Positions 45,881-64,000 of a stretch of DNA of 64,000 nucleotides are shown here, piece after piece (positions within the stretch are counted from its first letter, which is position 1; each line of letters opens with the position of its first letter). Under the pieces are notes generated by a model that was not told the DNA's origin, did not search any database, and saw nothing but the letters and a program-made list of their open reading frames with translations. The DNA lies in assembly GCF_000935125.1 (NCBI RefSeq), contig NZ_JRKI01000003.1, positions 434,001 through 498,000 of the forward strand. The letters run 5' to 3'. This DNA is from Streptomyces natalensis ATCC 27448. Lineage in GTDB: Bacteria > Actinomycetota > Actinomycetes > Streptomycetales > Streptomycetaceae. The position numbers and the translations under genes are program-made.

Positions 45881-45947
45881 TCGAACAATGAACCGTTCGA
45901 GATGCGAACGAAGAAACGTTGACGCTTCTCGGGGCCGCTCGTAGATT
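45881..45947 (+). promoter_or_regulatory. Promoter of the lipolanthine genes with GTTCG/CGAAC half-sites
   Basis: A near-consensus vegetative promoter: TTGACG at 45919-45924, 17 bases, then TAGATT at 45942-45947. Just upstream lie CGAAC (45882-45886), GTTCG (45895-45899) and CGAAC (45905-45909), forming overlapping palindromes including TCGAAC-N8-GTTCGA. The half-sites resemble those of the StrR-type site in the preceding gene, so this is a likely target of that activator. Transcription would start about 60 bases before the first GNAT gene. Confidence 0.65.
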
Positions 45948-46015
45948 GATTCACGAATTCAGCCGATAAAACATCCGGTCGCCGTCGGGTGCTTTATTAG
46001 AAACGTGGAGGCGGA

Positions 46016-46651
46016 ATGCCTGGAAATGAAATCTATGATGCTGTGAAAGCGGATGCAGAATTCATTCCCGTGGTTTCCGTGACGGATGAGGAGATGCTCG
46101 ACAGGGCCATTTCCCAGCCGTTCTCCTACGTGTCCACGGAGGGTCCGGTCTGGCGTACCTCCGCAGAGCGGCGGCGCTTCGTACAGGACGAGCGCTTGTC
46201 GCACCTCGTGGTCCGGGTTTCGTCCCGGGTGGTGGGCGCGGTGACCTGGTCACCAGGCCAGACCCCCGGATTCTTCAAGCTGAGCGTCACCTCGTGCGAC
46301 GACGCAGCGTGGACACCCCGGCTGGTCGAGCTCTCGATCAGGCAGGCGATGTCCCTCCTGCTGCGTGCCAGTGAGGCCAAGCGCGTGGAACTGCTGGTCG
46401 CCACCTACAACGAGGTGCTGCTCGACTACCTCACAACGTGCACCGCCTTCGAGGTGGAGGGCGTCCTGCGCGACCGCTTCTTCATCGACGGCCGGTACTG
46501 GCCGGCGGTCGTCTGCCGCGCCGACCTCGCCGCCTTCCCGGTCGAGGAGCGGCGGTGCGCAACGGAACGCCAGGAACTGCTCCGCCGCGTCCGGAAAAAG
46601 ACCCTTGAGGACCTTACGGCGGCCCATGACGGCACGTCATGGGCGGTTTGA
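46016..46651 (+). CDS. GNAT acyltransferase, first copy
   Basis: A 211-residue GCN5-related N-acyltransferase-like protein, divergent in sequence: HLVVRVSSRVVGAVTWSPGQ and FKLSVTSCDDAAWTPRLVELSIRQAMSLLL form the central strands and the helix that binds the pantetheine donor, and the end is AFEVEGVLRDRFFIDGRYWPAVV, typical of the GNAT C-terminus. In goadvionin biosynthesis a GNAT enzyme (GdvG) joins the polyketide acyl chain to the peptide N-terminus. This gene directly precedes the precursor peptide gene and is one of two candidates for that role here. It is the first gene after the promoter at 45919-45947. Confidence 0.78.
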   Translation: MPGNEIYDAVKADAEFIPVVSVTDEEMLDRAISQPFSYVSTEGPVWRTSAERRRFVQDERLSHLVVRVSSRVVGAVTWSPGQTPGFFKLSVTSCDDAAWTPRLVELSIRQAMSLLLRASEAKRVELLVATYNEVLLDYLTTCTAFEVEGVLRDRFFIDGRYWPAVVCRADLAAFPVEERRCATERQELLRRVRKKTLEDLTAAHDGTSWAV

Positions 46652-46738
46652 CGCGGGGAATCGCACCCCGCTCCTGAGCCACCGCCGGCAACGGCGGTTG
46701 TTTCCACTCACCACGATGCCCGAAAGGAGGAAAACACC

Positions 46739-46831
46739 ATGGACCTCACCAACGTGATGGAGCTGCAGGGCACCGAGATCGTCGCCGACGGCGTGGAGCT
46801 GCCCGCGAGTACGTCCAGCGACGGCTGCTGA
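46739..46831 (+). CDS. Lipolanthine-type lanthipeptide precursor
   Basis: A 30-codon gene with a strong AGGAGG nine bases before ATG. The leader has NVMELQGTE, matching the class III leader motif (hydrophobic-x-x-LQ) that LanKC kinases read. The C-terminus is ASTSSDGC: Ser24-x2-Ser27-x2-Cys30 is the labionin/avionin pattern and the final Cys is what the decarboxylase needs. Thr25 and Ser26 could also be dehydrated. The probable core is the last 8-10 residues, after VELP. It is very short for a lanthipeptide precursor, in keeping with the small cores of lipolanthines. A small hairpin (46682-46698) lies between the GNAT gene and this gene. Confidence 0.88.
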   Translation: MDLTNVMELQGTEIVADGVELPASTSSDGC

Positions 46832-46838
46832 CAACGGT

Positions 46839-46880: not shown

Positions 46881-46918
46881 CCGGACCGATGTGTGACCAG
46901 ATTCGAGAGGGGGCCGCT

Positions 46919-47935
46919 GTGCCCAGATGGGGACTGACCCCGGTCCACCCGCGGAGTGTCAGCTTGGCTCTGCCCGACCGGGTCGTCACGAACGCCGAAC
47001 TGTGCGAGGGGCTGGACACCACACCGGAGTGGATCGAGGAGAAGACCGGTATCCGAGAGCGCCGGTTTCTCGGCGACAACGACAACGTCACCGACCTGGC
47101 GATCGAGTCGGCCGGCAAGGCTCTTGCGCTCGCCGGGATCGAGGCCAGGGACGTGGACGTCCTCGTCGTGGCGAGTACGACCCCCGACTGGCTCATGCCC
47201 TCACTCGGAGTCATCATCGCGGACCGGTTGGGTATCGCCAGTCCGCGGATTGTGGACATCACCCAGCATGCGTGCGCGTCCTCCGTGTACGCGATCTACA
47301 CCGCCTCGTGCCTTCTGCAGGAGCCAGGGTTGGAGAATGCCCTCGTCGTCTGCGCCGAGGGGATCTCCCGAGTCACCGGCCCGGACGACCGGACCACCCG
47401 CATCTTCTTCGGTGATGCCGCTGCGGCCGCGGTGTTCAGCAAGACCGAGCCGTCTGCGGGGCTGCTCAGCTACGACCTCGGCAACACCTTTTCCGACGCT
47501 GTCCACATGGCATCACCTTCGCAGCTGTGCCACGAGCGCGCCGTGATCGGACGTGAACTGCACAGTCACTACCTGCAGATGGACGGCCGGGTCGTGCTGC
47601 GGGAGGCCCCTACCAGGCTTCCCAAGTCCATTGCCGAGACCCTGGCTGCCGCCGGAGCCGAGGTGCCGGACATCAGTGGGTTCGCGCTGCACCAGGCCAG
47701 CGCCATGATGGTGCGACTCATAGCGCGCACGGTGGGCGCGGACCTGGACCGCGTGGCCGTCACCGCCGACACCCTCGGCAACACCGGCGCCGCCTCGCCG
47801 CTCACCGCCCTGCACAAGCTGGCCCTCGACGGCCGGGCCAGACAAGGGGACCTCATCGTGCTCGGGGCCATCGGCGCCGGATTCCTGTGGGGCTCGATGT
47901 GTTTCAAGCTGCCGTACGACATCAGTGTGGAGTGA
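46919..47935 (+). CDS. KAS III-like ketosynthase
   Basis: A 338-residue thiolase-fold enzyme of the FabH family. The Cys-His-Asn triad is intact: C119 in HACASSVYAIY, H258 in FALHQASAMM and N288 in DTLGNTGAAS. FabH enzymes usually start chains from an acyl-CoA, but homologues in clusters also extend or esterify. GTG at 46919 is chosen for the GAGAGGGGG upstream; ATG at 46889 lies too close to the hairpin and lacks a binding site. The ACP gene follows at three bases, its likely partner. Confidence 0.9.
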   Translation: MPRWGLTPVHPRSVSLALPDRVVTNAELCEGLDTTPEWIEEKTGIRERRFLGDNDNVTDLAIESAGKALALAGIEARDVDVLVVASTTPDWLMPSLGVIIADRLGIASPRIVDITQHACASSVYAIYTASCLLQEPGLENALVVCAEGISRVTGPDDRTTRIFFGDAAAAAVFSKTEPSAGLLSYDLGNTFSDAVHMASPSQLCHERAVIGRELHSHYLQMDGRVVLREAPTRLPKSIAETLAAAGAEVPDISGFALHQASAMMVRLIARTVGADLDRVAVTADTLGNTGAASPLTALHKLALDGRARQGDLIVLGAIGAGFLWGSMCFKLPYDISVE

Positions 47936-47938
47936 TCC

Positions 47939-48172
47939 ATGGAAAAGCTGTGTGAGGTTTTCGTCTCGTTGTTCAAGGACCGGGTGGGCGATATCCACCC
48001 GGATGGCGACACCGTCGTATTCGGCAGCGAGAGCGCGTATGGCCTTGAGTCGATGGACACCCTGCGCTTCGTGTCGGCGTTGCTCCCGCTCTACGGGGAC
48101 AAGGTCTATGACCTGGAGGTCGAGGGCGTCAGTACGCTCAAGGGCTTGTACGAGCAGCTGCAGGGCGCGTAG
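47939..48172 (+). CDS. Discrete acyl carrier protein
   Basis: A 77-residue acidic ACP. The phosphopantetheine serine is S38 in GLESMDTLRF (LESMD in place of the usual DSL). The helical spacing and acidic helix II region match type II carriers. It sits between KAS III and a GNAT gene, so it may carry the growing or finished acyl chain that is passed to the peptide. Confidence 0.88.
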   Translation: MEKLCEVFVSLFKDRVGDIHPDGDTVVFGSESAYGLESMDTLRFVSALLPLYGDKVYDLEVEGVSTLKGLYEQLQGA

Positions 48173-48181
48173 CGGAACCCC

Positions 48182-48814
48182 ATGAAAGGTCTGCTGTGCG
48201 AACTGCATCCGCTCTCCGAGGCCGAGTTGGGAACAGTGGCTCAGTGGCTGGGTGGGACGGAGTGCGAGGAACTGCTCCGAGGTACGTCCAGCACGCTGAT
48301 CCGGCACGACCGGTATGCCGCCGTCGAAGCCGATGGGCGGCGTGCCGCACTGGTCACGGACACCCGGGGAACAGTAGTGGGGCTCATGCACTGGTGGCGG
48401 CTCGGGGAGGGCGTGTACGAGGTCGGCGGTGCGACGGGTGAACAGCGGCTGTGGGGAACGGGGATCGGTATCGAGGCGGCCGCGCTCCTGGTCGACTACC
48501 TCTTCGACGTCATGAACTGCCGGCGCGTCGAGTTCACTTCGGGGATCCACAACGACGCCACGATGAGTCTCGCGCTCAGCGACAACCTGTCGTTCGAAGC
48601 GGTATGTCGCGACTACTTCCAGACGTCACGCGGCGCTGTGCCGGCCGTCAAGTCGGGCCTCACCAGGGAAGAGTATGCGCGGCCCTATCCGCACTACCAG
48701 CCTCGCGTCGGCCGGCGCCTGGACAGCGGCCGGCTGGCAGAGCACGCCTTGGCCATGGCGCGGCGTATCGATATCCGCGAGATCGCGGACCGTGTGAGCG
48801 GAGAAGGACGATGA
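48182..48814 (+). CDS. GNAT acyltransferase, second copy
   Basis: A 210-residue GNAT protein closer to the ribosomal-protein (RimJ/RimL) acetyltransferase type: VGLMHWWRLGEGVYEVGGATGEQRLWGTGIGIEAAALLVDYLF is the donor-binding strand/helix with the pantetheine loop, and MNCRRVEFTSGIHNDATMSLALSDNLSFEAVCRDYF is the classic C-terminal half. It lies next to the ACP gene and overlaps the SDR start by ATGA. Given that position it is the stronger candidate for an ACP-dependent, GdvG-like acyl transfer to the peptide. Confidence 0.85.
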   Translation: MKGLLCELHPLSEAELGTVAQWLGGTECEELLRGTSSTLIRHDRYAAVEADGRRAALVTDTRGTVVGLMHWWRLGEGVYEVGGATGEQRLWGTGIGIEAAALLVDYLFDVMNCRRVEFTSGIHNDATMSLALSDNLSFEAVCRDYFQTSRGAVPAVKSGLTREEYARPYPHYQPRVGRRLDSGRLAEHALAMARRIDIREIADRVSGEGR

Positions 48815-49572
48815 GTGAAACGGAATCGCCGGCATACCGGAACGTTCTGGTAGTCGGCGGAACGAGTGGTCTGGGGCGCGCGGTGGCATGCGAGTTCGCA
48901 CCGCTGGCGGAACGGGTGCATCTGACCTACCACGGGCGGCGTGACGCGGCCGAGGAGACGGCCGCCGCGGTGACCGAGCACGGAGGGACGCCGGTCGTCC
49001 ACCAGCTGACCCTGCCGGATCCCAACCCCCGGGCCACGAGTGTGCGCCGGCTGCTCGGGAACATCGCCCCGTGTGACGTGGTCGTGAACTGCGCTGTCAC
49101 CAATCACGCCGCCGTGGCCACCGTTTCCAACGCGGAGCGGTTCAAGTCGGTCATCGACGCCAATGTCTTCGGTGCGTACCAGGTCAACGCGGTCTGCGCG
49201 CAGGCGATGGCCGCGACGGGTGGCGGCACTGTGGTGAATGTGTCGTCGATCCTCACCAAGCGCTACATCGTGGGGGCGATCGGATACATCACCAGCAAGG
49301 CGGCCATCGAGGCGCTGACACGAGGATTTGCCCGCGAGTGGGGCAAGCTCGGGCTTCGGTTCACGACCGTCTCGCCCGGCCCGATCCGGGACACCGGGCT
49401 GCTGGACACCGTCCCCCGGGAAGCGGTCGAGGAGATCATGGGCGGCCCCGACTACCTGGAGCGGCTGCTGCAGCCTCGGCGGGTGGCCTCGGTCATCCGA
49501 CAGCTCACAGCTCCTGACTTCTCCGCGGTGAACGGCGAAGTCGTTGTCGTCGACGACGGGTTCTCGCTGTGA
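48811..49572 (+). CDS. SDR-family reductase (FabG-like)
   Basis: A 253-residue short-chain dehydrogenase. The NAD(P) motif is VVGGTSGLGRAVACEFA, followed by the NCAVTN strand (N-x-A), NVSSIL with the catalytic Ser and GYITSKAAIEAL with Tyr and Lys. A likely role is beta-ketoacyl-ACP reduction for the acyl chain, acting with the KAS III and ACP two genes earlier. It overlaps both neighbours (ATGA upstream, GTGA downstream), so it is translated with them. Confidence 0.88.
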   Translation: MSETESPAYRNVLVVGGTSGLGRAVACEFAPLAERVHLTYHGRRDAAEETAAAVTEHGGTPVVHQLTLPDPNPRATSVRRLLGNIAPCDVVVNCAVTNHAAVATVSNAERFKSVIDANVFGAYQVNAVCAQAMAATGGGTVVNVSSILTKRYIVGAIGYITSKAAIEALTRGFAREWGKLGLRFTTVSPGPIRDTGLLDTVPREAVEEIMGGPDYLERLLQPRRVASVIRQLTAPDFSAVNGEVVVVDDGFSL

Positions 49573-50483
49573 CCGACACCGGCGCCTATATCTTTCCGTC
49601 CCAGGTCTTCCTCGACACGGAGATGCGCAAGCGTTGTCTGGAGTCGAAGGCGATGCGGATCCTGCTGGACCTCGCCAGCGACACGCTCTCGATGGACTTC
49701 CGCGCCATCCTGCGCGACGGCACGGAGGAAGAGGCGAACGACCCCCGCTTCCGACGCCCGCTGATCAACATCATGGGCGTTGCCGGTTACCGGGAGGAGG
49801 TACGTCGGCGTGACGTGCAACCCGTCTGTGTCACGGGTATCAGCCTGGGGTACCTCAGCGCGGCCGGAGCGGTGGGCTGGGTGTCCCTGGAGGACATGGT
49901 GCGCATGTCCAACACCATGGCGGCGATCGAGATCGAAGCCTTCGACCACACCGACTACCGCAGCGTCTTCTTTTACAACGGCGATCACGTCAAGGTGTTC
50001 GATGCCTTGCGCGCCGAGGGCCTGGACTCCCTGCTCCACATGTCGGTCGTGGTGTCGAGCAACCAGTTCATCGCCGCCTGCCGCAAGTCGGACATGGACG
50101 CGATGAAGCCGGCACTGATGCGCGCCGGTGCCCTGTTCAAGGTGATTCCTTACAGTTTCCCGGGCCACTGCGATCTGATGGGCGACGTGCAGGAGACGTT
50201 CACCAAGGAGTGGACGTTCAAGGATCCCTACGGCAACACGACCGTCCCGTTGGTCAGCATCAACGACTGCCGGCCGTACACCAGTGGGGAGGAGGTCTGG
50301 AAGCTGACGAAGGAGCAGTACACGACCGTCCTCGACTGGCGTGGCGTGCTCGACTACCTTGACGCACTGGAACTGGACTCCTATGTGGTGCTGGAGCCCT
50401 CCGATTTCGTGGTGAAGTCCATGAAGCTGGACCCGTTCTGCCGTCTGCGGCCCCAGATCGGTGGAGTCCTTGATGGCGTCTGA
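49569..50483 (+). CDS. FabD-like acyltransferase, atypical (first)
   Basis: A 304-residue protein with the FabD/AT fold: nucleophile elbow GISLG (S92) and a His in PYSFPGHCDLMG near residue 200. The N-terminal GQGxQ of normal malonyltransferases is replaced (YIFPSQVFLD), and the position of the conserved Arg that holds the malonyl carboxylate reads as MSNTM instead. It may therefore move a non-malonyl acyl group or act as an editing hydrolase. GTG at 49569 overlaps the SDR stop. Confidence 0.75.
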   Translation: MTDTGAYIFPSQVFLDTEMRKRCLESKAMRILLDLASDTLSMDFRAILRDGTEEEANDPRFRRPLINIMGVAGYREEVRRRDVQPVCVTGISLGYLSAAGAVGWVSLEDMVRMSNTMAAIEIEAFDHTDYRSVFFYNGDHVKVFDALRAEGLDSLLHMSVVVSSNQFIAACRKSDMDAMKPALMRAGALFKVIPYSFPGHCDLMGDVQETFTKEWTFKDPYGNTTVPLVSINDCRPYTSGEEVWKLTKEQYTTVLDWRGVLDYLDALELDSYVVLEPSDFVVKSMKLDPFCRLRPQIGGVLDGV

Positions 50484-51369
50484 CCGGGCCCTCGTCTTCC
50501 CTGGGCTGGTGCCGCTGACTGAGCCCGCACTGGCCGCCGTTCTCGACCGGCGCGATGACCACCTCGAATTCGCCGCACGGATCTGCCGGTTCCATCCCGA
50601 TGGCATAGACCGGGACGAAGGCAGCACCGGTCTGCCCTCCACGGTGCACGAGGCGCTGCTTGCAGTGGCGGTGGTCCGACGGCTGGAGCAGGAGGCCGGC
50701 CGCTGGACCGCATACGGCGGCCTGAGCGCGGGCTGCCTGCCGGCGCTGCTGGCCGCGGGTGCGATCACAGAGGAGACGTGCTTCCGGCTGATCTGGGAGA
50801 TCAACTCCCGGCAGATCGCCGCGAACCGTCTGCACCGCAGCGGATCCACACTTGTGTTCCTCGCGTCGTCGAGGGGAGACGCACACCAGCTGATCGAGGC
50901 GCTCCGCAGGTACGAGAAGTCCGCATGGCTCTCGGTCGACCTGGGTGGCGGCCTGGGAGCGGTGAGTGTGCGGAGTACTGAGCCGGAGGTGCTCGGCCCG
51001 CTGTTCCACAAGTTCGGGGTCTCCGTCATGGAAACGGTCGACCGGGCCGAGCACTGCCCCTACGCGGTCCCCGAGCCGCAGGAGTTCGCCCGAATCCTGC
51101 GGGACGTGGAGTTCTGCACTCCGAACGCAGCTGTCGTCTCCCCGCTCACCGGCAAGCAGGTGGACAACACCCCGGACGCGCTCCGGCGGATGCTCTTGGA
51201 GCAGTGGTTCGACACGGCGAGCCTGCCCCGACTCGTCGAGGGCCTGTGCGGTGTCGACGGGGTGCGCGGCGTGGACCTGGTCGCCCCGGCGAAGTCGGTC
51301 TATGTGCCCTGTATGCGCGGGCTGCTCCAGGACAGGGCGGAGCACCGGTTCCTCCGGCTGCCGGGCTGA
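50473..51369 (+). CDS. FabD-like acyltransferase, atypical (second)
   Basis: A 298-residue relative of the preceding gene, overlapping its end. It keeps an elbow GGLSAG (S85), LVFPGLVPL at the start instead of the usual FPGQGSQ, and AEHCPYAVPE with the likely His. The region that should contain the malonyl-binding Arg reads LIWEINSRQ, so malonyl specificity is doubtful. Two such proteins in tandem suggest a complex or a division between transfer and proofreading. ATG at 50473 has GGAG upstream. Confidence 0.72.
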   Translation: MASDRALVFPGLVPLTEPALAAVLDRRDDHLEFAARICRFHPDGIDRDEGSTGLPSTVHEALLAVAVVRRLEQEAGRWTAYGGLSAGCLPALLAAGAITEETCFRLIWEINSRQIAANRLHRSGSTLVFLASSRGDAHQLIEALRRYEKSAWLSVDLGGGLGAVSVRSTEPEVLGPLFHKFGVSVMETVDRAEHCPYAVPEPQEFARILRDVEFCTPNAAVVSPLTGKQVDNTPDALRRMLLEQWFDTASLPRLVEGLCGVDGVRGVDLVAPAKSVYVPCMRGLLQDRAEHRFLRLPG

Positions 51370-51434
51370 CGCCCGCGAACCACGCGCACATCCCCGAACC
51401 ATCAGACGCTCGGAACAACAACAGGAGGGCTGCC

Positions 51435-52580: not shown

Positions 52581-52589
52581 AGAGGAACG

Positions 52590-55500: not shown

Positions 55501-58500
55501 TGTCCGAGGCTTTCGCCACCGCGTCGACCGCACGACGCCGACCGGGGCCTGGACACTGCGCGCTGGGCTCCGTGAAGTCCAGCACGGGGCACTTGGACGA
55601 GGCGGCGGGCATTGCCGGGCTGATCAAGGCGGTGCTCTGCGTCGAGCGCGGGACCCTGGTGCCGAGCCTGCACTTCCGCGAAGCCAACGAGGAGATCGAC
55701 TTTGCGGGCTCCCCGTTCCGGGTGAACACCAAGACGGTCCCGTGGGACTCCGCCGGTGGCCCGAGGACGGCCGGCGTCACCTCGCTGGGGGTGGGCGGGA
55801 CGAACTGTCACGTGATCCTCCAGGAGCCGCCGCACCCGGCATCCGGCGGCAGTCCGACGGAGAACCGTCACGGCACGGATGCCGCAGCGCCCTCCCGCGT
55901 GCCGACGGACGGCCATGACCGCGCGATCAGTGACCGGCCGGCGCCTGAGCGGGTGGATCACCGGTCCGTACTTCTCTTGAGCGCCCGCAGCGATGCCGCC
56001 CTCGGCGAGCTGACCGACCGCTATCTGGACCTCCTAGCAGCGCCGTCCCGCCCCGTCTTCAGCGACATCTGCTTCACCGCTGCGACGGGGCGTCGGCACT
56101 TCGCGCACCGGCGCGCCGTCGTCGCGGGCTCCGCGGAGGAGGCGCGCGAGCAGTTGCGCGCTGCCGTCGCCACCTCCCCGCGGCAGCCGTCGCCCTTCGC
56201 ACGGCGGCCGGGGAATGTGGCGTTTCTCTTCCCCGGACAGGGGCCGCAGTACGCAGGCATGGGACGTGAGCTCTACGACCGTGTGCCGGCCTTCCGCGCC
56301 GCCCTGGACCGGTGCGATGAGCTGCTGCGCGGCCGGCTCGAACGACCGCTGCTGTCCGTGCTGTTCCCTGGGCCCTCCGAGCCGTCCCCCATCGGTGAGA
56401 CGCGATACGCCCAGCCGGTGCTGTTCGCCGTCGAATACGCCCTCGCCGAGACCTGGCGGTCGTGGGGAGTCGAACCCGGCGTCCTGCTGGGGCACAGCCA
56501 TGGTGAGTATGCCGCTGCCTGTGTGGCCGGTGTCCTGTCGCTGGAGGACGCCCTGACGCTGGTGCACGCTCGCGGAGAGCTGATGCAGAAGCGCACCGAG
56601 GCCGGGACGATGGTCGCGGTGGCGGCCGGCGAGACCACGGTCGCGAAGCTGCTGACCGGGGACACCGCGATCGCGGCGGTCAACGGCCCGTTCTCGACGG
56701 TCATCTCCGGCCGGACGAGCCACATACGGCGGATCTGCGACGAGTTGGCCGCCCAGGGTATCCGCCACCGAGTGCTGGACATCTCGATCGCCTCGCACTC
56801 CCCCCTGATGGAGCCGATGCTGGCGGATTTCCAGGCGGTGGCGCGCTCGGTCCAGTACCACCCGCCGCGCATCCCCATCGTGTCGACGGTGACGGGCGAA
56901 CCCGCTGGCCGGGAGATCGCGCACTGGAGCTACTGGGTCGGCCAGATCAATCGGCCGGTACGGTTCCACGACGCCAGCACGGCGCTCGAGGCCCTGGGCC
57001 CCTGCGCCCTGCTGGAGATCTCGCCGAAACCGACCCTGTTGCAGCTCCTCGAGGAACGCGATGAGCAAGGGGGAAGCGGCCCGGTGCTGGTACCGAGCCT
57101 GAGGCCGGACCGCCCCCGGGACCAGTTGCTTGAAGCGGCCCGTGCCCTGTATCTGGCCGGGGCGCAGCTCGACTGGTCCGCTTTCTTCGGCGGCGGCCAC
57201 CGCCGCGTGGCCTTGCCGGCCTCCCCGTGGCAGCGCGAACGCCACTGGATCGACGCGCCGCCGCCTGCTGCCGTTCCGGCCGGCCGGTCCGCCGGCCACC
57301 CGCTGCTGGGCAGGCGGCTCGACCTTGCCGGCGGCGACGGCATCCGGTTCGACTCCACGGTGGGCGTGCCCACCACTCCATGGCTGCGCGACCACCGCGT
57401 GTTCCAGTCGGTCGTGCTGCCCGGAGTCGCCTATCAGGAACTCGCGTTCAGCGCCGCGAGGGAGGCGTACGGCTCGGTGCCGGCCGAGCTCCGCGACTTC
57501 TCGATCCAGCGGGCGATGGCCTTCCCGGACGACCGGAGTCTGCGTCGGATGCAAGTCGTGCTGAGACCGGACGACGCGGAGTACGACTTCGAGGTGTACT
57601 CCCGGCCGCTGCCGGAAGACGAAGGGACCGGCGATCCGGCTGCCGACGGACCGGCGGTGCCCGCTTCCTGGACCTTGCATGCCTCGGGACGCCTGGCGCC
57701 GGCAGGTGCACCGGTGCGGCCGCCGCTCGCCCCTGAGCCGCTGTCAGCGCTGCGCGAGGCGTTCGCCGGCGACGAGCTGGAGCCGGACGAGATCTACCGG
57801 CGGGAACGGGAACGCGATATCGACCTGGGACCGCTCTTCCAGGTTACGGAGCGGCTGTGGCAGGACGGAGAGACGGCGCTGTCGCGGATCTCTCTCGGAC
57901 CCGGGCTGCGCGCCGAGGCCGCCGGCCACCGCGTGCACCCGGTCCTGCTGGAGGCCTGCTACCTCGCGCTCACCGTCACGTACCCGGAGAAGCTCGGGCG
58001 CAGGACCTACGTGCCGCTCGGCGTCGAGTTCATCCGGGTCGAGCGGCATGCGGCGGCGCAGGCATGGTGCCACGCACGGTTGCGTCCCGCGAGGGGGGAG
58101 GACCCGGAGACGCTACGCGCCGACGTGGACCTGTACGCCCCGGACGGTGGCCTGATCCTGGCCATGACCGGGGTCGCGCTCAAGCGCGCGGATCGGGCGG
58201 CGATGCTCCCGCCGCGGCCGGAGGGACGGCAGGAATGGCTGTACGAGACGCGCTGGGCGGCGGCTGGTACGCCGGCCGTGTCGGCAGGCGGCGGTCGGTG
58301 GCTGCTGCTCGCCGGCGACGAGGGCGCCCGTGACCTGGCGCGCCGGGTGGCCGAGTCGGCCCGCTCGAATGGAGTGGCCTGCGAGGTGCGCGACGACGAT
58401 GACGCGTCGGGCGGGACGGTGCCAGTCGGAAGGCACCCCTACGCCGGATACGACGTGACAGCGGCAATCCCGGCGACCGGGAACGGGGAAGGCGATGCCG

Positions 58501-60041
58501 GCCGCGCAGCCCTGGCTCTGGGACAGCGCCTGCTGCGACTCGTCCAGCGCGTCGGGGGCATGGACCGGCGTCCTCCCCGCCTCTGCCTGGCGACGCGCGG
58601 CGCGCAGGCTATCGAGGGCCGGGGCGTCACCAGCCCTGCGCAGGCCGGAATGTGCGGGCTGGGGAGGGTGGTGGCCGCCGAGCATCCAGAATTACGGTTC
58701 ACCCAGGTCGATCTCGACCCTGGCGCGGAGCCCGGTGGGCAGGCGGCCGTGCTCTACGCCGAACTGGCCGCGCTCGCCGCGGCGGGAGAACCGGCCGACG
58801 ACCACCGGATCGGTTACCGGGGCACTCAGCGGTACACGGCACGGCTGAGCCGTGCCTCCGTGCACGCGGCGCCGGGCGAGAGCACAGTCGGGGTGCGTGG
58901 GGACGCCACATACCTGATCACCGGCGGGCTCGGCGGGCTCGGGCTGGAGACCGTACGGCTGCTCTGCGGCGCGGGCGCCCGGTATGCGGTGCTGATGGGG
59001 CGGACACCGCCGGACGCGGCCGCGGAACGGACGATCGCCGAACTCCGTGCCCAGGGAGTGACACTGGAGGTATACGCGGTCGATGTGGCCGACGCCGAAC
59101 GGCTTGCGCAGATGGTCGGCCGGGTCGCCGACGATCCTCGCTTCCCGCCCCTGGCCGGTGTACTGCACCTTGCCGGGGTGCTCGACGACGGTGTCCTGCT
59201 GCTGCAGTCGCCGGAGCGCTTCGAGCGGGTCATGGCGCCCAAGGCACGTGGTGCGTGGAACCTGCACACCGCGACGGCGGAGTGTCCGCTGGACTTCTTC
59301 GTCCTGTTCTCCTCTGTCTCGTCCCTGCTGGGAACCCCTGGCCAGGCGAACTATGCGGCCGCGAACGCATTCCTCGACGGCCTTGCCGCGTTCCGGCAGG
59401 AGCAGGGCCTGCCGGCCCTGGCCATCCAGTGGGGCTCGTGGGCCGAGGTGGGCATGAGCGCCCGGGCGGGCCTGGACGTTGCACTGGAGCGCCGGGGTGA
59501 GGGCGTCGTCCCGAAGCGGGACGGCCTGGCGCTGCTCGCCGAGCTGCTGACGACCCGACACCGCCATCCGGGCGGCACGATCGCCGTACTGCCGGCCGAC
59601 TGGGAGCGCTTCGCGGACCGGAACCTGCCCGCGACCAGGGGCTTCCTCGCGGACATGCCGGGTGGTGCGCGGCGCGGTGAGCGGGACTCCCGGATGTCGT
59701 TCCGTGCCACGTTCGATGCGGCTTCGGCACCTCGTCGGCGCGAGCTCCTGCGGGACTGCGTCCGAGAGCATGTGGCGAGCGTGCTGGGCACGGGCCCAGG
59801 GCTCCCGGACGACGGGGACTTCTTCGCCGGAGGACTGGACTCGCTCACCGCGATCCAGCTGCGGCGAAACCTGCAGCTGACGCTGGAGTGCGGACTACGG
59901 CAGACGCTGGTGTTCGACCACCCGACCGTCGCGTCGCTGACCGGCCATCTGCTGGACGTGCTCGGTCGCGAGCCGGCTGTCACGAGTGACCTCACCGCCG
60001 CGGTCCGCAGCGACTTGGTGCACGAAGGAGGAGGCCGATGA
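52590..60041 (+). CDS. Hybrid NRPS-PKS, A-PCP-KS-AT-DH-KR-ACP
   Basis: 2,483 residues. An adenylation domain (about 20-515: TSGSTGVPKG near 174, NHYGATE, YRTGDLARR, SSGKTDRG) with a PCP (Ser near 568 in LGGTSLLLVQ) can load a carboxylic acid. KS (641-1080): Cys near 820 in VQSACSTSLV, His in EAHGSGT and STGHLDEA. AT (about 1210-1510): GHSHGEY; the selectivity site reads IASH rather than malonyl HAFH. DH (about 1570-1865): His in LRDHRVFQSVVLPG, with Gly of HxxxGxxxxP replaced by Gln and the catalytic Asp replaced by Glu in HPVLLEACY, so activity is uncertain. KR (about 2105-2290): TGGLGGLG, LDD (B-type), Ser and Tyr intact. ACP: GLDSL near 2416. No ER or methyltransferase. A TTA codon lies at 58692. 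The predicted role is one extension of a guanidino-acid starter. Confidence 0.93.
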   Translation: MPNHSAHAPRSAERTPGTVHEMVERHGRGDRADSVAVVHGSRRVSYRALDAMAARAAAVLRRAGVGEGAFVGVRMARTPEAVATILGVLRTGAAYVPIDRADPAERVRHVIGTAGIDVVVTDGLSESSVTAARLLRLTEGCRPAPSDEPEQPVQDGAAGLMAAVTPAAAAYAIFTSGSTGVPKGAVMTHAALVNLLTWHDRVRPGSCRLRTAQVCAVSFDFSFHEIFSTLCFGGTLVLADDEVRRNPFALAAFLRDERIERVFLPVTLMEHLARAVAQEPVELGLREVVTTGELLRISPPVRDLFRRTQARLHNHYGATEFQDATSCTLDGDPADWPSVAPIGRPIDGVQVHIVDDRLREVPDGTEGELCVAGAGVSPGYLAQPELTAERFVPNPHGSGRMYRTGDLARRGTDGTLELLGRIDTQVKVHGVRIETGEVESLLLTHPSVGDAAVVAHDIDGQRRLVAHVVPGAELDTGTAGRVLHEFLAASLPPLLLPEAYRLLPALPLTSSGKTDRGRLQPPDTFERLAPTAVLTAVTATEQLLVDVWRSALRLDELSIEDRFFDLGGTSLLLVQVRQELATRLDRDIPMVDLLRYPTIRDFAAYLDRSGTEPGGHGEAGASPGPPPADPGRLAAPRRSGGGDVAIIGMAGRFPGAPDIETYWRNLVDGVETVRPLPGGAGGQRDSSLAAHPDFVTAGAVLPDIDRFDAAFFGLSPKEADLLDPQQRVFLECAWEALENAGYAPGGTGASDVGVFAGAGLSTYLLNNLAPHFGYGHGKALTESDLEQFQLKLGNDGNYLATRVSHALNLRGPGITVQSACSTSLVAVHLACRSLIDGESGMALAGGVHIVVPQEAGYLHEEGMILSRDGHTRAFDADASGTLFGNGCGVVALKRLEDAVADRDRIIAVIKGSAVNNDGNAKVSFTAPSAGGQADVVRAALEAAGVDPADIGYVEAHGSGTALGDPIEVAALSEAFATASTARRRPGPGHCALGSVKSSTGHLDEAAGIAGLIKAVLCVERGTLVPSLHFREANEEIDFAGSPFRVNTKTVPWDSAGGPRTAGVTSLGVGGTNCHVILQEPPHPASGGSPTENRHGTDAAAPSRVPTDGHDRAISDRPAPERVDHRSVLLLSARSDAALGELTDRYLDLLAAPSRPVFSDICFTAATGRRHFAHRRAVVAGSAEEAREQLRAAVATSPRQPSPFARRPGNVAFLFPGQGPQYAGMGRELYDRVPAFRAALDRCDELLRGRLERPLLSVLFPGPSEPSPIGETRYAQPVLFAVEYALAETWRSWGVEPGVLLGHSHGEYAAACVAGVLSLEDALTLVHARGELMQKRTEAGTMVAVAAGETTVAKLLTGDTAIAAVNGPFSTVISGRTSHIRRICDELAAQGIRHRVLDISIASHSPLMEPMLADFQAVARSVQYHPPRIPIVSTVTGEPAGREIAHWSYWVGQINRPVRFHDASTALEALGPCALLEISPKPTLLQLLEERDEQGGSGPVLVPSLRPDRPRDQLLEAARALYLAGAQLDWSAFFGGGHRRVALPASPWQRERHWIDAPPPAAVPAGRSAGHPLLGRRLDLAGGDGIRFDSTVGVPTTPWLRDHRVFQSVVLPGVAYQELAFSAAREAYGSVPAELRDFSIQRAMAFPDDRSLRRMQVVLRPDDAEYDFEVYSRPLPEDEGTGDPAADGPAVPASWTLHASGRLAPAGAPVRPPLAPEPLSALREAFAGDELEPDEIYRRERERDIDLGPLFQVTERLWQDGETALSRISLGPGLRAEAAGHRVHPVLLEACYLALTVTYPEKLGRRTYVPLGVEFIRVERHAAAQAWCHARLRPARGEDPETLRADVDLYAPDGGLILAMTGVALKRADRAAMLPPRPEGRQEWLYETRWAAAGTPAVSAGGGRWLLLAGDEGARDLARRVAESARSNGVACEVRDDDDASGGTVPVGRHPYAGYDVTAAIPATGNGEGDAGRAALALGQRLLRLVQRVGGMDRRPPRLCLATRGAQAIEGRGVTSPAQAGMCGLGRVVAAEHPELRFTQVDLDPGAEPGGQAAVLYAELAALAAAGEPADDHRIGYRGTQRYTARLSRASVHAAPGESTVGVRGDATYLITGGLGGLGLETVRLLCGAGARYAVLMGRTPPDAAAERTIAELRAQGVTLEVYAVDVADAERLAQMVGRVADDPRFPPLAGVLHLAGVLDDGVLLLQSPERFERVMAPKARGAWNLHTATAECPLDFFVLFSSVSSLLGTPGQANYAAANAFLDGLAAFRQEQGLPALAIQWGSWAEVGMSARAGLDVALERRGEGVVPKRDGLALLAELLTTRHRHPGGTIAVLPADWERFADRNLPATRGFLADMPGGARRGERDSRMSFRATFDAASAPRRRELLRDCVREHVASVLGTGPGLPDDGDFFAGGLDSLTAIQLRRNLQLTLECGLRQTLVFDHPTVASLTGHLLDVLGREPAVTSDLTAAVRSDLVHEGGGR

Positions 60042-60754
60042 CCAATCGTACGACGCAGTTGGTGTGCCTTCACCACGCCGGTGGCAACCCCTCCGTGTTC
60101 CGGCCCTGGGTGGAGCAGGCCCCGGAGGGCGTTGACGTGCTCCCGGTCGTCCTGCCGGGCGCCCGCAACGCTGACAGACGACGGCGCCACCGCCGCACCG
60201 AACAGCTGATTCCGGCCCTCGTGGCGGAGTTGGAGGAGCAACTGGCCGACGACTACGTGCTGTTCGGGCACAGCATGGGAGGTCTGCTGGCTTATCTCCT
60301 CGCGCGGCACTTCGAGGAGAACGGCGGCCCGAGACCCAGGGCACTGGCGGTGGCCGCCTTCAGGGCGCCACATATGCCATGGCACGACTTGACGGCGGAG
60401 TGCGATGACGAGGCGCTGATCCGGCGGCTGCACGGCATCGGCGGGATCCCGGCGTGGCTGCTGGACCACCCCGACTGGCTGGCCCCCTTCCTGGGGCTGG
60501 TGCGTGACGACACTGAATTGTGCAGCTCGTACCGTCATGTCCCACAGAAAAGCCGGCTCGCCGTGCCAATTCATGTGTTCGGCGGTGCCGGCGACCCTCT
60601 GGTTTCCGCTCATGAGCTCGAACGGTGGACGGAAGTCGGGGAGCGGGTGGAGATCACGTTCCTGCCGGGCGGGCATTTCCTGGTGACCGAGGATTCCGGC
60701 CAGCTGAGCCGGGCGATTTTCGCCCTCGCCCTTGGCGGACGGCAGTTGGCTTGA
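60038..60754 (+). CDS. Type II thioesterase
   Basis: A 238-residue alpha/beta hydrolase of the NRPS/PKS-associated type II thioesterase family, with LVCLHHAGGNPSVFRPW at the start, nucleophile GHSMGG (S79) and a C-terminal catalytic His in LPGGHFLV. It overlaps the NRPS-PKS stop by ATGA. Such enzymes clear wrongly loaded carrier proteins; release of the chain is less likely because a GNAT is expected to take it directly. Confidence 0.92.
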   Translation: MTNRTTQLVCLHHAGGNPSVFRPWVEQAPEGVDVLPVVLPGARNADRRRRHRRTEQLIPALVAELEEQLADDYVLFGHSMGGLLAYLLARHFEENGGPRPRALAVAAFRAPHMPWHDLTAECDDEALIRRLHGIGGIPAWLLDHPDWLAPFLGLVRDDTELCSSYRHVPQKSRLAVPIHVFGGAGDPLVSAHELERWTEVGERVEITFLPGGHFLVTEDSGQLSRAIFALALGGRQLA

Positions 60755-60859: not shown

Positions 60860-61111
60860 GTGAACTTCAAAAGGATTCTTGGAATTGCCCTTATCTGCGC
60901 CGGAGCCATCCTGGCAATTTTCTTCTGGGACCTTAAGTATCAATGGTTCAAAGGAGGGCCGCTCGGTGTTCTGCTGTTGATCATCGGCGTCATTGACCTG
61001 GCCGAGTCCTTCAGGTCCGCCGATCGGAAGAAGTCCCGGGGCATCGTGGGCGAGCTCCGCGACGACCTCGGCATCAACTCGCGACGCCGGGACGACGACC
61101 GAAGGCAGTGA
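60860..61111 (+). CDS. Small two-span membrane protein
   Basis: An 83-residue protein with two membrane segments (ILGIALICAGAILAIFFW and GVLLLIIGVIDLA) and a basic tail with RKKSRG and RRRDDDRR. GTG at 60860 follows GAGGGAATT. The gene lies in lower-GC DNA between the thioesterase and decarboxylase genes. No family is recognised; self-immunity or a membrane anchor for the modification complex are guesses. Confidence 0.7.
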   Translation: MNFKRILGIALICAGAILAIFFWDLKYQWFKGGPLGVLLLIIGVIDLAESFRSADRKKSRGIVGELRDDLGINSRRRDDDRRQ

Positions 61112-61172
61112 GCGGGCCGGGGCGAACGGTGCGGTGAGCCGAAATGCAGCCAGGGGGAAGGATCGTGAACCG

Positions 61173-61790
61173 ATGACCCAGTTCGACAAGAGTGAGACGG
61201 CCAGATCGCGAAAGGCAGGCCTGTTCGTCATCTCCACCGGTACGCTCTCCACGGCGCACCTGCCCTTCTGGCTCAATTGGCTGTCAGCGAACCGGCCGCA
61301 CTACTCGGTGACGGTCGGGCTCACCGACAGCGCCAAGCAGTTCGTTAGTTCGCCCGCCCTCACCGCGCTGACCAAGACACCGGTCGTGCCCAACTCCTGG
61401 GACACGGGGGACGGTCTGCGGCCGGTCCACACCGAGATTGCCATCGGGTACGACGGCATTGTCGTCTACCCCGCCTCCGTGGCCTTCCTTTCCGGGCTTG
61501 CGGCCGGTTCGGGAACCTCGCCATTCTTCTTGGCTGCACTCGGGACCCGGGCCCCCGTCGTCATCGCCCCCTCGTTCCCGCCGGGCGTGGCGGACAACCC
61601 GATCGTTGCCGACGTACTGGCGCGGATCGCGAGCGTGCCCAATTTCCACTTGGTCGCTCCGCACAAGGGCAAGAGCCGGAGCGTCGATGCCGAGGCGGAT
61701 GTGACGGCGCCGCTGTGGGACGCAATCGGCGTGTTCGAAGCGGCGGCCGAAGCTGTGCCGGTGGGCCCGGTCCCCGCCGAACAGCGGTGA
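61173..61790 (+). CDS. HFCD-type flavoprotein Cys decarboxylase (LanD-like)
   Basis: A 205-residue flavoprotein of the EpiD/MrsD/PPC-decarboxylase family. It has a Rossmann-like FMN-binding start (AGLFVISTGTLST), the central HTEIAIGYDGIVVYPASVAF with the catalytic His, and PSFPPGVADNPIV (the PxMNxxMW-like region, diverged). In lanthipeptide pathways it decarboxylates a C-terminal Cys to an enethiol, as MicD does for microvionin; the precursor here ends in Cys, which fits. ATG at 61173 is preceded by GGGGGAAGG. Confidence 0.85.
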   Translation: MTQFDKSETARSRKAGLFVISTGTLSTAHLPFWLNWLSANRPHYSVTVGLTDSAKQFVSSPALTALTKTPVVPNSWDTGDGLRPVHTEIAIGYDGIVVYPASVAFLSGLAAGSGTSPFFLAALGTRAPVVIAPSFPPGVADNPIVADVLARIASVPNFHLVAPHKGKSRSVDAEADVTAPLWDAIGVFEAAAEAVPVGPVPAEQR

Positions 61791-61867
61791 CCGACTCTCC
61801 GGGCAGGGCGAGCGCGCACAGTAACCGACCACCGCGCACAGCGGCCGACCACACGAGGGAACCGGGC

Positions 61868-64000
61868 ATGGACCACTTCTTCCACACCTTTGCCGACCCC
61901 GACTTCTACGAGGACATCGCCCGGTGGCGGTGCCCTCCCGACGATCCACGGTTTCGCAGAATACGACGGGGGCCGGCATCCGTCGCGTACGCCGATGGCT
62001 GGCAGTACACGCGCCACGGCATCTGGACCGTCTGCAGCCCTGGGCAGGAACCCCTTGGCAAACAGGGGTGGAAGCTCCACATCGCGGTCACGCCCGAGTC
62101 ATTCCCGGCTCTACTCGAGAAGGTCTCCGGTTTCTGTTTCTCGCGCCGGGTCCGATTCAAATTCCTGGCCCGGTACGAGTATGCGTGGCTGGTCAACGCC
62201 AAGTACGCACCCCGGCCCGTCAGCGGGAAGGGCATCGTCCTCTACCCGGCCGACGAGGACCTGTCGGTCGCGCTGGCCCGCGAGCTGACCGAGTCACTGC
62301 GGGATGCAAGAGGGCCGCGGATCCTGTCCGACCTGCAGCTCGACGACACCGTCGTGCATGCCAGGTACGGCGCCTACACCCGCCGGTACTGCCGTGACGC
62401 CGTCGGAAAGGTTGCTTTCGCGCTGGAGGACCCCGACGGGCGCCTGGTGCCCGACCGGAGATCGGTTCCGTTCGCGGCACCACCGTTCGTCGTCGTACCC
62501 GACGCGTTCAAGGCGCGCCGACCGACGGCCGAGGGGCCGCTGCCGCCGTACCGGGTCGACAAGACACTTCACTTCTCCAACAGCGGCGGCGTCTACCTGG
62601 CCACCAACCTGGACGACGACCGACAAGTCGTCCTGAAGGAGGCACGCCCCCACGCCGGTTACGACCTCGTGGGAGGCGACGCCGTCCGGCGGGCCGTTCG
62701 CGAGTACGAGGCGATGCGCAGGTTCGCCGACCTGCCGGAGGTGCCTGAGGCGTACGACCAGTTCACCTGGCAGTCCCACCTGTTCACCGCGATGGAGTAC
62801 GTCCAGGGCGCCACGCTCCAGGAGTGGTGCGCCGCCCACCAGCCCTTCCTGCTGCGCTCCGACCCCTTCGCCCCGCCCGCTCCGGAGGAGGTCCAGGACT
62901 ACCGGGAGAAGGTCGAGGTGATGCTGGTACGGCTGCGCAAGGTACTCGGAGCCCTGTGGAAGCGGGGGTACATCTTCGGGGACATCCACCCCGGCAATGT
63001 GATGGTGACGCCCGAGCTCGACGTCCGGCTCCTCGACCTGGAGGCGTGTCTGCCCGAGACGGAAGCACGTCCGTTCCCCGGCGCACCGGGGTTCAGCGAT
63101 CCGGCCAGGAGCGGCCGGGACGCCGACGAGTACGCGCTGGGCATGCTGGAGCTCTCCTGCTACCTGCCGCTCACCCACCTCGCCCGCATGGACGGCACAA
63201 AGCTGCGCCAGCTCACCGAGGTCGCCCGCAGCAGGTTCGGCCTGTCTCGGAGCTGGGCAGACCGGATCGCGGGTATCGACCCAACACCGGCCGCTGCGCA
63301 TCCCCACGACGGTCGCCCGGCCGGCTCCGCTTCCTCCAGCCACGTCGAGGAGGCCCTCGGGTTCGAGGCGTGGGCCGCCCGCATCGTGGCCGGCCTGAAG
63401 TCCGTGATGGACGATCACCGGCCCGACCGCCTCTTCCCCTGCGACCACACCGGGTTCGCCCTGTCGCCCGTGTCACTCGCCACGGGGGCGGCAGGTGTGC
63501 TGTGGGCTCTGCTGGGCACCGAAGACCTCGGCATACAGCCGTCCTCCGACGGAGCGGACTGTCGCGAGTTCGTCACCGCACTGGAGCTGGAGGGCCTCAA
63601 CGAGCGGATCACCAACTGGATCGTGACGCAGGGCCGCGCCTCCGCAGGGCGGCTCGAATGCGGGCTCTACGACAGCGGATTGGGCGCCGGGTACACGCTC
63701 TGGAGGGCTGGGCGAACCGAACACGCCCAGTGGCTGGTGGACGCCGCCCTCGCACGGGACCGCGCATCGTGCGGGCTGAGCCTGTTCAGCGGCCTCGCCG
63801 GCATCTACCTGGCGGTGGCGGAGATGTCGGGTGCGGCGAGGCCGCCGGGTGTTGCGGATCGGGACGTGCCTCGGCCCCCCTTGGTACCGGTCTCGCTTGC
63901 CGAGGAGATGGGTGCAGAACTTGCGGAGCGGGCGGACCGGTTCGCCATCCGGCTGCGCAAGGCCGGATCCCGTGATGTGTCGCAGTACGGGCTGATGCAC
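61868..64000 (+). CDS. Class III lanthipeptide synthetase LanKC (3' end missing)
   Basis: 711 codons remain open to the right edge. N-terminal lyase part (1 to about 215) includes the class III signature YAWLVNAKYAPRPVSGKGIV. The kinase domain follows (about 225-520): ATP-site Lys near 255 in VVLKEARP, catalytic Asp near 372 in FGDIHPGNVMV and the second metal-site Asp near 390 in LLDLEAC. The LanC-like cyclase begins around 530 (SLATGAAGVLW) and is cut. The enzyme phosphorylates and eliminates Ser/Thr of the precursor and directs cyclisation to labionin or, with the decarboxylase, avionin. Cyclase zinc ligands, absent in class III, cannot be checked. The 78 bases upstream hold no promoter that I could see. 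Confidence 0.92.
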   Translation, partial: MDHFFHTFADPDFYEDIARWRCPPDDPRFRRIRRGPASVAYADGWQYTRHGIWTVCSPGQEPLGKQGWKLHIAVTPESFPALLEKVSGFCFSRRVRFKFLARYEYAWLVNAKYAPRPVSGKGIVLYPADEDLSVALARELTESLRDARGPRILSDLQLDDTVVHARYGAYTRRYCRDAVGKVAFALEDPDGRLVPDRRSVPFAAPPFVVVPDAFKARRPTAEGPLPPYRVDKTLHFSNSGGVYLATNLDDDRQVVLKEARPHAGYDLVGGDAVRRAVREYEAMRRFADLPEVPEAYDQFTWQSHLFTAMEYVQGATLQEWCAAHQPFLLRSDPFAPPAPEEVQDYREKVEVMLVRLRKVLGALWKRGYIFGDIHPGNVMVTPELDVRLLDLEACLPETEARPFPGAPGFSDPARSGRDADEYALGMLELSCYLPLTHLARMDGTKLRQLTEVARSRFGLSRSWADRIAGIDPTPAAAHPHDGRPAGSASSSHVEEALGFEAWAARIVAGLKSVMDDHRPDRLFPCDHTGFALSPVSLATGAAGVLWALLGTEDLGIQPSSDGADCREFVTALELEGLNERITNWIVTQGRASAGRLECGLYDSGLGAGYTLWRAGRTEHAQWLVDAALARDRASCGLSLFSGLAGIYLAVAEMSGAARPPGVADRDVPRPPLVPVSLAEEMGAELAERADRFAIRLRKAGSRDVSQYGLMH

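What the first reader, a model, noticed from the sequence alone, without database searches (positions are those of the whole stretch)
45881..64000. A probable lipolanthine (lanthipeptide-polyketide hybrid) cluster
One strand carries a LanKC, a Cys decarboxylase, a precursor ending in Cys, a hybrid NRPS-PKS, an amidinotransferase, KAS III, ACP, SDR and two GNATs. Microvionin and goadvionin are made by this kind of combination (established). The particular set here, and the very short core, suggest a new member. The LanKC C-terminus and any methyltransferase, KS, ER, leader protease or exporter lie beyond the window.
Basis: partly seen in the sequence, partly recalled or inferred. Interest (0 to 1): 0.95.

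Follow-up and report, generated by a model that had tools for sequence, protein, structure and literature searches.

The report
Guanidinoacetate-capped lipolanthine gene cluster
A Streptomyces bacterium carries one conserved block of genes that pairs ring-forming enzymes for a tiny ribosome-made peptide with a starter system resembling the one cyanobacteria use to begin the toxin cylindrospermopsin, and the block would likely make an antibiotic-like peptide capped with a guanidine-bearing chain, a combination that our literature searches did not find described.

Summary
A one-strand gene set runs from 46016 past the window edge to 65421. It encodes a 30-aa precursor (core ASTSSDGC), KAS III, ACP, one GNAT and one GNAT-like protein, SDR, two FabD-like proteins, an amidinotransferase, an A-PCP-KS-AT-DH-KR-ACP protein, TE, Cys decarboxylase and class III LanKC (completed beyond the window, 898 aa). 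Three other Streptomyces loci share the order; the 3' half was also seen in Nonomuraea and Nocardiopsis. So it is one cluster, not two. The eight-residue core is not unusual: nocaviogua A has A-S-V-S-S-D-G-C with avionin at 2, 5 and 8, and its producer's LanKC is the closest named relative outside the clade (49%). The difference lies in the acyl side. The amidinotransferase has the substrate flap of CyrA (DYFPS versus DIFPS) and sits beside a CyrB-like A-PCP-KS protein. A guanidinoacetate starter is therefore likely; nocaviogua's chain has 13 carbons. One FabD-like protein lacks the malonate-binding Arg, and its close relatives form a family of 28. One relative has lost the whole PKS module; another has swapped precursor, decarboxylase and LanKC. 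Verdict: lipolanthine-type, a new variant. Chain length and product are untested.

The parts
41464..43470 (+). SARP-type regulator (BTAD, NB-ARC), likely pathway regulator
   Evidence: Pfam; 59% homologue beside the cluster in G030
43833..44489 (+). LuxR-type regulator; cluster membership uncertain
   Evidence: Pfam GerE; no homologue found in the relatives' stretches searched
44824..45845 (+). ParB/StrR-like regulator (name from a look at the sequence) read in two frames (44824-45297 and 45267-45845); one open frame in G030 and G249
   Evidence: no Pfam match above cut-off
46016..46651 (+). GNAT-like protein 1
   Evidence: profile of 5 homologues hits spermidine N1-acetyltransferases at 1.9e-4; no Pfam match; conserved 60-79%
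46739..46831 (+). precursor peptide, 30 aa, MDLTNVMELQGTEIVADGVELP + core ASTSSDGC (core 46805-46828)
   Evidence: xSxxSxxC core in 5 of 5 intact precursors read
46889..47935 (+). KAS III (FabH-like), Cys-His-Asn present
   Evidence: Pfam/NCBIfam; triad in 5 of 5
47939..48172 (+). stand-alone ACP-like protein, conserved YGLESMDT motif
   Evidence: no Pfam match; motif in 5 of 5
48182..48814 (+). GNAT 2 (Acetyltransf_3), candidate acyl-to-peptide transferase
   Evidence: conserved 59-87%
48811..49572 (+). SDR (FabG-like reductase; ER role not excluded)
49569..50483 (+). AT1: FabD/MdcH-like acyltransferase; Ser and His kept, malonate Arg replaced by Met
   Evidence: 28 close relatives at 45-100% identity, next ten matches 23-37% and partial
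50473..51369 (+). AT2: second, more diverged FabD/MdcH-like protein (GLSAG)
51429..52580 (+). CyrA-type amidinotransferase, predicted Arg:Gly (guanidinoacetate)
   Evidence: PDB match to human AGAT 1.8e-82; flap DYFPS; 69% to an Aphanizomenon amidinotransferase
52590..60041 (+). NRPS-PKS A-PCP-KS-AT-DH-KR-ACP, 2483 aa; A about 52680-54128, PCP 54216-54407, KS 54516-55676, AT 56223-57119, DH 57297-58202, KR 58905-59447
   Evidence: Pfam; motifs
60038..60754 (+). stand-alone thioesterase (type II-like)
   Evidence: Pfam Thioesterase 2.6e-35
60860..61111 (+). 83-aa membrane-like protein, conserved in the cluster
61173..61790 (+). LanD peptidyl-Cys decarboxylase
61868..64000 (+). class III LanKC (RamC_N, kinase, LanC-like); ends at 64564 in window numbering, beyond the window

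Best explanation
This is a single lipolanthine-type gene cluster that likely makes an avionin-bridged octapeptide whose N-terminal alanine would be capped with an acyl chain predicted to start from guanidinoacetate. Proposed route; every step is inferred from sequence. (1) The CyrA-type amidinotransferase moves the amidino group of Arg to Gly. (2) The A domain activates guanidinoacetate and loads the PCP; the KS-AT-DH-KR-ACP module adds at least one C2 unit. (3) AT1, a FabD relative without the malonate-binding Arg, moves the guanidino-acyl group to the small ACP, where KAS III and the SDR may add and reduce one more C2 unit. (4) LanKC dehydrates Ser2 and Ser5 of ASTSSDGC and LanD decarboxylates Cys8, closing the avionin ring across 2-5-8. 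(5) After leader removal by a protease elsewhere in the genome, a GNAT joins the acyl chain to Ala1, as in goadvionin (recalled), and the SfLAP membrane protein may export the product. Shown: gene content, synteny, motifs, conservation. Not shown: any enzyme activity, chain length, the product.
For: One gene order in window, G030, G249 and G114; the 3' half in Nonomuraea candida and Nocardiopsis chromatogenes. Co-occurrence of AT1 and LanKC. Five of five intact precursors read are xSxxSxxC, the spacing of the avionin in nocaviogua A (Avi2, Avi5, Avi8), whose producer's LanKC is the nearest named one outside the clade at 49%. Amidinotransferase flap D-Y/H-F-P-S in 7 of 7 loci against CyrA D-I-F-P-S and human D-P-N-P-M (PMC4887976, passages); CyrA is reported to accept only Arg and Gly (PMC3684758, passages). 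A-PCP-KS-AT-DH-KR-ACP beside it as in CyrB, which is thought to activate guanidinoacetate (PMC2885083, passages). A-domain pocket DFHF[VI]THDA in 7 of 7 loci. AT1 Ser and His invariant and never Arg at the FabD Arg117 position in 20 of 20 aligned. dN/dS 0.15-0.51 in 57 gene comparisons with four relatives.
Against: No activity or product is known. The pocket code matches no code I know; guanidinoacetate loading rests on the neighbour and on architecture. The DH carries Glu for the usual Asp in 6 of 6, and Q or D for the motif Gly in 3 of 6, so it may be impaired. The roles of KAS III, AT2 and the second GNAT are guesses, and the SDR could be an ER. No protease gene was seen in the cluster, and no Peptidase_S9_N in the genome, though 7 Peptidase_M1 matches were found. 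A regulator gene is read in two frames, so the cluster could be silent here. Some close AT1 relatives were not checked for a LanKC beside them.
Confidence: 0.6

Rival explanations
1. Ordinary long-chain lipolanthine: the single PKS module works iteratively and builds a long guanidino fatty acid like that of microvionin or nocaviogua; guanidinoacetate is only the starter, or the amidino group goes onto another amine.
For: Single KS-AT-DH-KR-ACP modules can iterate (established for the HSAF/ikarugamycin family, recalled). Known avionin peptides carry long chains. The SDR could supply an ER activity.
Against: No ER domain and a doubtful DH in the PKS. G030 has lost the whole module yet keeps the rest of the gene set, so a long chain is not needed there. 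The CyrA-type flap argues for glycine, which gives an even chain, whereas nocaviogua's chain has 13 carbons.
Confidence: 0.25
2. Two clusters side by side with separate products: a small guanidino polyketide (46889-60754) and an avionin peptide.
For: G280 keeps the acyl genes at 77-90% identity while its LanKC/LanD have been replaced, so the halves can be uncoupled in evolution.
Against: The precursor and a GNAT lie at the 5' end and LanD/LanKC at the 3' end of the acyl genes in the window, G030, G249 and G114; 5 of 5 Streptomyces genomes with AT1 have a LanKC and LanD in the same locus, including the swapped one.
Confidence: 0.07
3. Two acylations: the NRPS-PKS chain and a second, KAS III-made acyl group are attached by the two GNATs at different sites, or one GNAT acetylates the guanidine or an intermediate.
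For: Two GNAT-like genes, KAS III, ACP and SDR are all conserved.
Against: The core has only one free amine (the N terminus) and no Lys; the GNAT-like protein 1 is very diverged.
Confidence: 0.08

Closest known systems
Nocaviogua A/B, nocavionin and microvionin (lipolanthines)
   Same: Class III synthetase plus Cys decarboxylase chemistry; 8-residue core with avionin at residues 2, 5 and 8 (nocaviogua: A-S-V-S-S-D/N-G-C); LanKC 49% identical to that of the nocaviogua producer; a guanidine on the N-terminal chain (here predicted).
   Different: Nocaviogua's chain has 13 carbons and a dimethylated guanidine. No methyltransferase matched here. None of the 38 AT1 matches bears the nocaviogua strain's name, though many are unnamed. 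I could not read the mic, noc or nocaviogua clusters themselves.
Goadvionin (gdv)
   Same: PKS plus LanKC plus an acyltransferase joining acyl chain and peptide (title seen in reference lists; GNAT type and other details recalled).
   Different: C32 trimethylammonium chain from a large PKS (recalled). A LanKC of a strain named TP-A0584 (recalled as the goadvionin producer) is only 35-37% identical.
Cylindrospermopsin starter pair CyrA/CyrB
   Same: Arg:Gly amidinotransferase with the D-x-F-P-S flap beside an A-PCP-KS-AT-DH-KR-ACP protein.
   Different: CyrB has a methyltransferase domain and is followed by further PKS genes; here there is none and the acyl chain is predicted to go to a ribosomal peptide. 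Nothing suggests that this cluster makes the cyanotoxin.
Pheganomycin
   Same: A small ribosomal core peptide is linked to a guanidinoacetic-acid-type residue, and amidinotransferases occur in related neighbourhoods (PMC8939145, passages).
   Different: The cap is an aryl-substituted 2-guanidinoacetic acid joined by the ATP-grasp ligase PGM1; no LanKC, LanD or avionin is named in those passages, and no ATP-grasp matched among the genes scanned here.
CypD/MrsD-type peptidyl-cysteine decarboxylases
   Same: LanD aligned to the cypemycin enzyme at 2.6e-15.
   Different: 70.6 bits, below the CypD family cut-off of 215.

Membership tests
Lipolanthine | class III LanKC in the cluster | tested here: met
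   NF038151 676.6 bits, cut-off 575
Lipolanthine | flavin Cys decarboxylase and C-terminal Cys core | tested here: met
   5 of 5 intact precursors read end in Cys
Lipolanthine | S-x2-S-x2-C core giving avionin | tested here: met
   sequence only; the bridge itself is not testable here
Lipolanthine | PKS/FAS genes and an acyltransferase-type gene in the same cluster | tested here: met
   gene content only:
Lipolanthine | long acyl (lipid) chain on the N terminus | not testable with these tools
   the PKS module may iterate or not; it is absent in G030
Lipolanthine | hybrid product isolated | not testable with these tools
   no chemistry available
CyrA-type Arg:Gly amidinotransferase | 300-flap with F245 and S247 (D-I-F-P-S in CyrA) | tested here: met
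   D-Y/H-F-P-S in 7 of 7 loci
CyrA-type Arg:Gly amidinotransferase | strict use of Arg and Gly | not testable with these tools
   needs an enzyme assay
CyrB-type NRPS-PKS | A-PCP-KS-AT-DH-MT-KR-ACP | tested here: not met
   same order but no MT domain matched: works like, not filed as, CyrB
FabD malonyl-CoA:ACP transacylase (AT1) | Ser-His plus malonate-binding Arg117 | tested here: not met
   Ser and His kept, Arg absent in 20 of 20 aligned
Pheganomycin-type guanidino-acid peptides | ATP-grasp ligase PGM1 joining the cap to the peptide | tested here: not met
   no ATP-grasp family among the Pfam matches of the genes scanned

The most novel reading that the evidence does not exclude
The cluster makes no lipopeptide at all but a short, strongly cationic cap: a CyrA/CyrB-like guanidinoacetate starter with only one or two C2 units, handed by a dedicated AT1-ACP-GNAT relay to an avionin peptide. 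This would be a separate subclass of acylated ribosomal peptides, in which the acyl block is a self-contained module that nature has already re-paired with another precursor/LanD/LanKC set (G280) and stripped of its PKS (G030).
Probability: 0.4. Interest if true: 0.72.

Novelty: new variant of a known kind. Interest (0 to 1): 0.58.

Why it matters
Few lipolanthines are known (12 before nocaviogua, according to that 2023 paper), and microvionin is reported there as active against MRSA. This family would add a new way to prime the acyl chain, by amidinotransferase plus A-PCP loading, and a small relay of transfer enzymes that could carry polar acyl groups to ribosomal peptides. Its natural variants are ready-made experiments: one has lost the PKS module, one has exchanged the peptide enzymes. 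They make it directly testable whether acyl and peptide halves are interchangeable.

Tried and rejected
Rejected: the short core as a sign of novelty (nocaviogua has the same eight positions). Rejected: two clusters. Rejected: leader cutting by a prolyl oligopeptidase after the conserved Pro at -1; no Peptidase_S9_N match in the genome; Peptidase_M1 (the family that I recall for AplP) gave 7 matches, which proves nothing as such enzymes are common. Led nowhere: AlphaFold of GNAT 1 from one sequence gave mean pLDDT 42 and was not searched further; GNAT 1 against GNAT 2 profiles gave 20.8% probability, E 0.0011; LanKC in 396 genomes of the phylum found only the window's own (best two candidates scored per genome); AT1 in 41 genomes of relatives found only the window's own. 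I could not read the microvionin, nocavionin or goadvionin clusters; two papers that I wanted are not held. Rows dropped: L013 is the same contig as G114 (equal contig length) and was counted once; L014 and L015 begin within the amidinotransferase gene, so their precursors were not seen; the two G280 LanD/LanKC rows (0.55, 0.83, not orthologous) and one undefined row were left out of 60.


Full report
What is there. The window lies at bases 434001-498000 of contig C3 of an 8.65-Mb genome; relatives named in the protein search are mostly Streptomyces. I took the adjoining 57 kb and completed the cut gene. The gene set on the + strand is: SARP regulator 41464-43470, LuxR regulator 43833-44489, a ParB/StrR-like regulator in two frames 44824-45845, GNAT-like 1 46016-46651, precursor 46739-46831, KAS III 46889-47935, ACP 47939-48172, GNAT 2 48182-48814, SDR 48811-49572, AT1 49569-50483, AT2 50473-51369, amidinotransferase 51429-52580, A-PCP-KS-AT-DH-KR-ACP 52590-60041, thioesterase 60038-60754, an 83-aa membrane-like protein 60860-61111, LanD 61173-61790, LanKC 61868-64564 and an SfLAP membrane protein 64711-65421 (coordinates above 64000 continue the window numbering). 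The next genes called are a dCTP deaminase, a phosphoribosyltransferase and a GDSL/ricin-lectin protein, so the cluster likely ends before them. Spacing within 46016-65421 never exceeds about 150 bp and several genes overlap.

Is it one cluster? The same order is found in three other Streptomyces loci (G030, G249, G114), with 48-82% protein identity gene by gene (the precursor 83-93%), and from the amidinotransferase to SfLAP in Nonomuraea candida and Nocardiopsis chromatogenes. Of 392 genomes of the genus, AT1 is in 5 and the LanKC clade in 4; the 4 are all among the 5 (only the best few candidates per genome were scored). The fifth, G280, has the acyl genes with a different LanKC. In 57 gene comparisons with four relatives, dN/dS is between 0.15 and 0.51 (NG86; of 60 rows, one was undefined and the two non-orthologous LanD/LanKC rows of G280, 0.55 and 0.83, are left out).

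The peptide half. The precursor is MDLTNVMELQGTEIVADGVELP-ASTSSDGC. Cores in the intact relatives are ASTASDGC, ASGSSEGC, VSTNSDGC and ASTGSSTC: with the window's, five of five keep Ser2, Ser5 and Cys8 and a Pro just before the core. In nocaviogua A the NMR assignment is Ala1-Avi2-Val3-Ser4-Avi5-Asp6-Gly7-Avi8 (PMC10435860, parts 1 and 2 of 4 read). The LanKC of that strain (Nocardia sp. XZ_19_369) is the closest named protein outside the 57-64% clade, 49% in the hit list and 51% in the alignment; an unnamed one follows at 48%, another at 41%, and the rest listed at 36% and below (a 60% fragment in the list covers only 56% of the query). So the eight-residue core and the avionin ring are what this enzyme clade is expected to make. 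That is membership by gene content; the ring itself was not observed.

The acyl half. The amidinotransferase matches human Arg:Gly amidinotransferase (1.8e-82). At the substrate flap the human enzyme has D-P-N-P-M, CyrA D-I-F-P-S (PMC4887976, passages); here it is D-Y-F-P-S, and D-Y/H-F-P-S in 7 of 7 loci. CyrA is reported to take only Arg and Gly (PMC3684758, passages). An Aphanizomenon amidinotransferase is 69% identical in the hit list. Amidinotransferases of about 70% identity and more occur in many other actinomycetes, so this enzyme alone does not mark the cluster. The neighbouring protein has the order of CyrB, a hybrid NRPS-PKS that is thought to activate guanidinoacetate (PMC2885083, passages), without the methyltransferase domain. 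The A-domain pocket (positions assigned by me against recalled GrsA numbering) reads D-F-H-F-V-T-H-D-A and is the same in 7 of 7 loci except V/I at one place. By recalled motifs KS, AT, KR and ACP look intact; the DH has Glu for Asp in 6 of 6, and Q or D for the motif Gly in 3 of 6, so a hydroxyl may remain. The PKS has no ER domain; the free SDR could reduce either a keto group or a double bond. A guanidinoacetate-primed chain grows by C2 units and is even; nocaviogua's chain has 13 carbons, so its starter must differ.

The transfer genes. AT1 aligns to E. coli FabD with the catalytic Ser and His in place and Met at the malonate-binding Arg (the roles and numbers of these residues are recalled); in 20 aligned homologues of 28 close ones, Ser and His are invariant and Arg is never there. 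Those 28 are 45-100% identical; the next ten matches carry the ordinary acyltransferase domain and are 23-37% identical over part of the length. For 9 of the 28 the longest contig has the same length as that of a LanKC hit; the others were not checked. I read AT1 as a transferase for a non-carboxylated acyl group, i.e. the guanidino-acyl chain, onto the stand-alone ACP. KAS III keeps its triad in 5 of 5. GNAT 2 is a clear GNAT; GNAT 1 is GNAT-like by profile only. Which of them joins the acyl group to Ala1 is open; goadvionin's acyltransferase is the precedent (recalled; only its title and one review sentence were seen).

Two natural variants. In G030 (contig length equal to that of Streptomyces sp. 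ISL-10) the 7.5-kb gene is reduced to an A domain and one carrier of 626 aa in frame; the carrier is closer to the window's last ACP (44.6%) than to its PCP (31.6%). The PCP-KS-AT-DH-KR part is thus gone while the rest of the set remains, so the PKS extension is optional. In G280 (contig length equal to that of Streptomyces sp. NBC_01381) the acyl genes are 77-90% identical, but LanKC is missing at the 3' end and LanD survives only as fragments in more than one frame; at the usual place a decayed-looking precursor still ends in ASTSSDGC, and upstream stand a new precursor (core ASTGSSTC) and a second LanD/LanKC pair only 35-37% identical. The peptide half appears to have been replaced on the same acyl half.

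Mechanism and its weak points. The route in Best explanation is inference from these facts. Masses for six possible caps are in the next-steps field; the same arithmetic fits nocaviogua A. Not settled: chain length, the substrate of the A domain, the jobs of KAS III, SDR, AT2 and the TE, the leader protease (no Peptidase_S9_N in the genome) and whether the cluster is expressed, since one regulator gene is in two frames here.

Is it new? Nine paper searches were made; I saw titles and starts of abstracts, in several cases of only the first 12-20 of many papers. None listed a lanthipeptide primed with guanidinoacetate. The nearest precedent met is pheganomycin, a ribosomal peptide joined by an ATP-grasp ligase to a substituted guanidinoacetic acid (PMC8939145, passages). 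The library lacks most subscription journals, and the founding lipolanthine and goadvionin papers were not read. The antiSMASH 5 paper holds the word lipolanthine in its abstract (listing), so clusters like this may be flagged in bulk without description. I therefore call it a new variant of a known kind.

Noticed in passing
L093/L094 (G280), precursor relic, LanD remnant and upstream LanD/LanKC pair: Natural exchange of precursor, LanD and LanKC beside an otherwise conserved acyl gene set; the old core ASTSSDGC is still readable in a decayed-looking precursor.
   Followed up: yes
L095 (G030), A-carrier gene between amidinotransferase and thioesterase: The whole PKS module is missing in frame while the rest of the cluster is kept.
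   Followed up: yes
window 44824-45845: ParB/StrR-like regulator gene is read in two overlapping frames here but in one open frame in G030 and G249; an assembly error or a real frameshift.
   Followed up: partly
window numbering 64711-65421 (L005 3711-4421): SfLAP-family membrane protein found after LanKC (after the LanD remnant in G280) in each of the seven loci of this family compared; mycobacterial relatives are tied to lipid and glycopeptidolipid export (recalled), so it is a candidate exporter.
   Followed up: partly
window 3617-3689: Cobalamin riboswitch match (38.6 bits, gathering 31.5).
   Followed up: no
window 30719-31033 (-): Immunity protein 53 family match; its toxin partner was not looked for.
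   Followed up: no
G000 contigs C28 and C29 (L001-L003): Three other LanC-like matches in the same genome, not part of this cluster.
   Followed up: no
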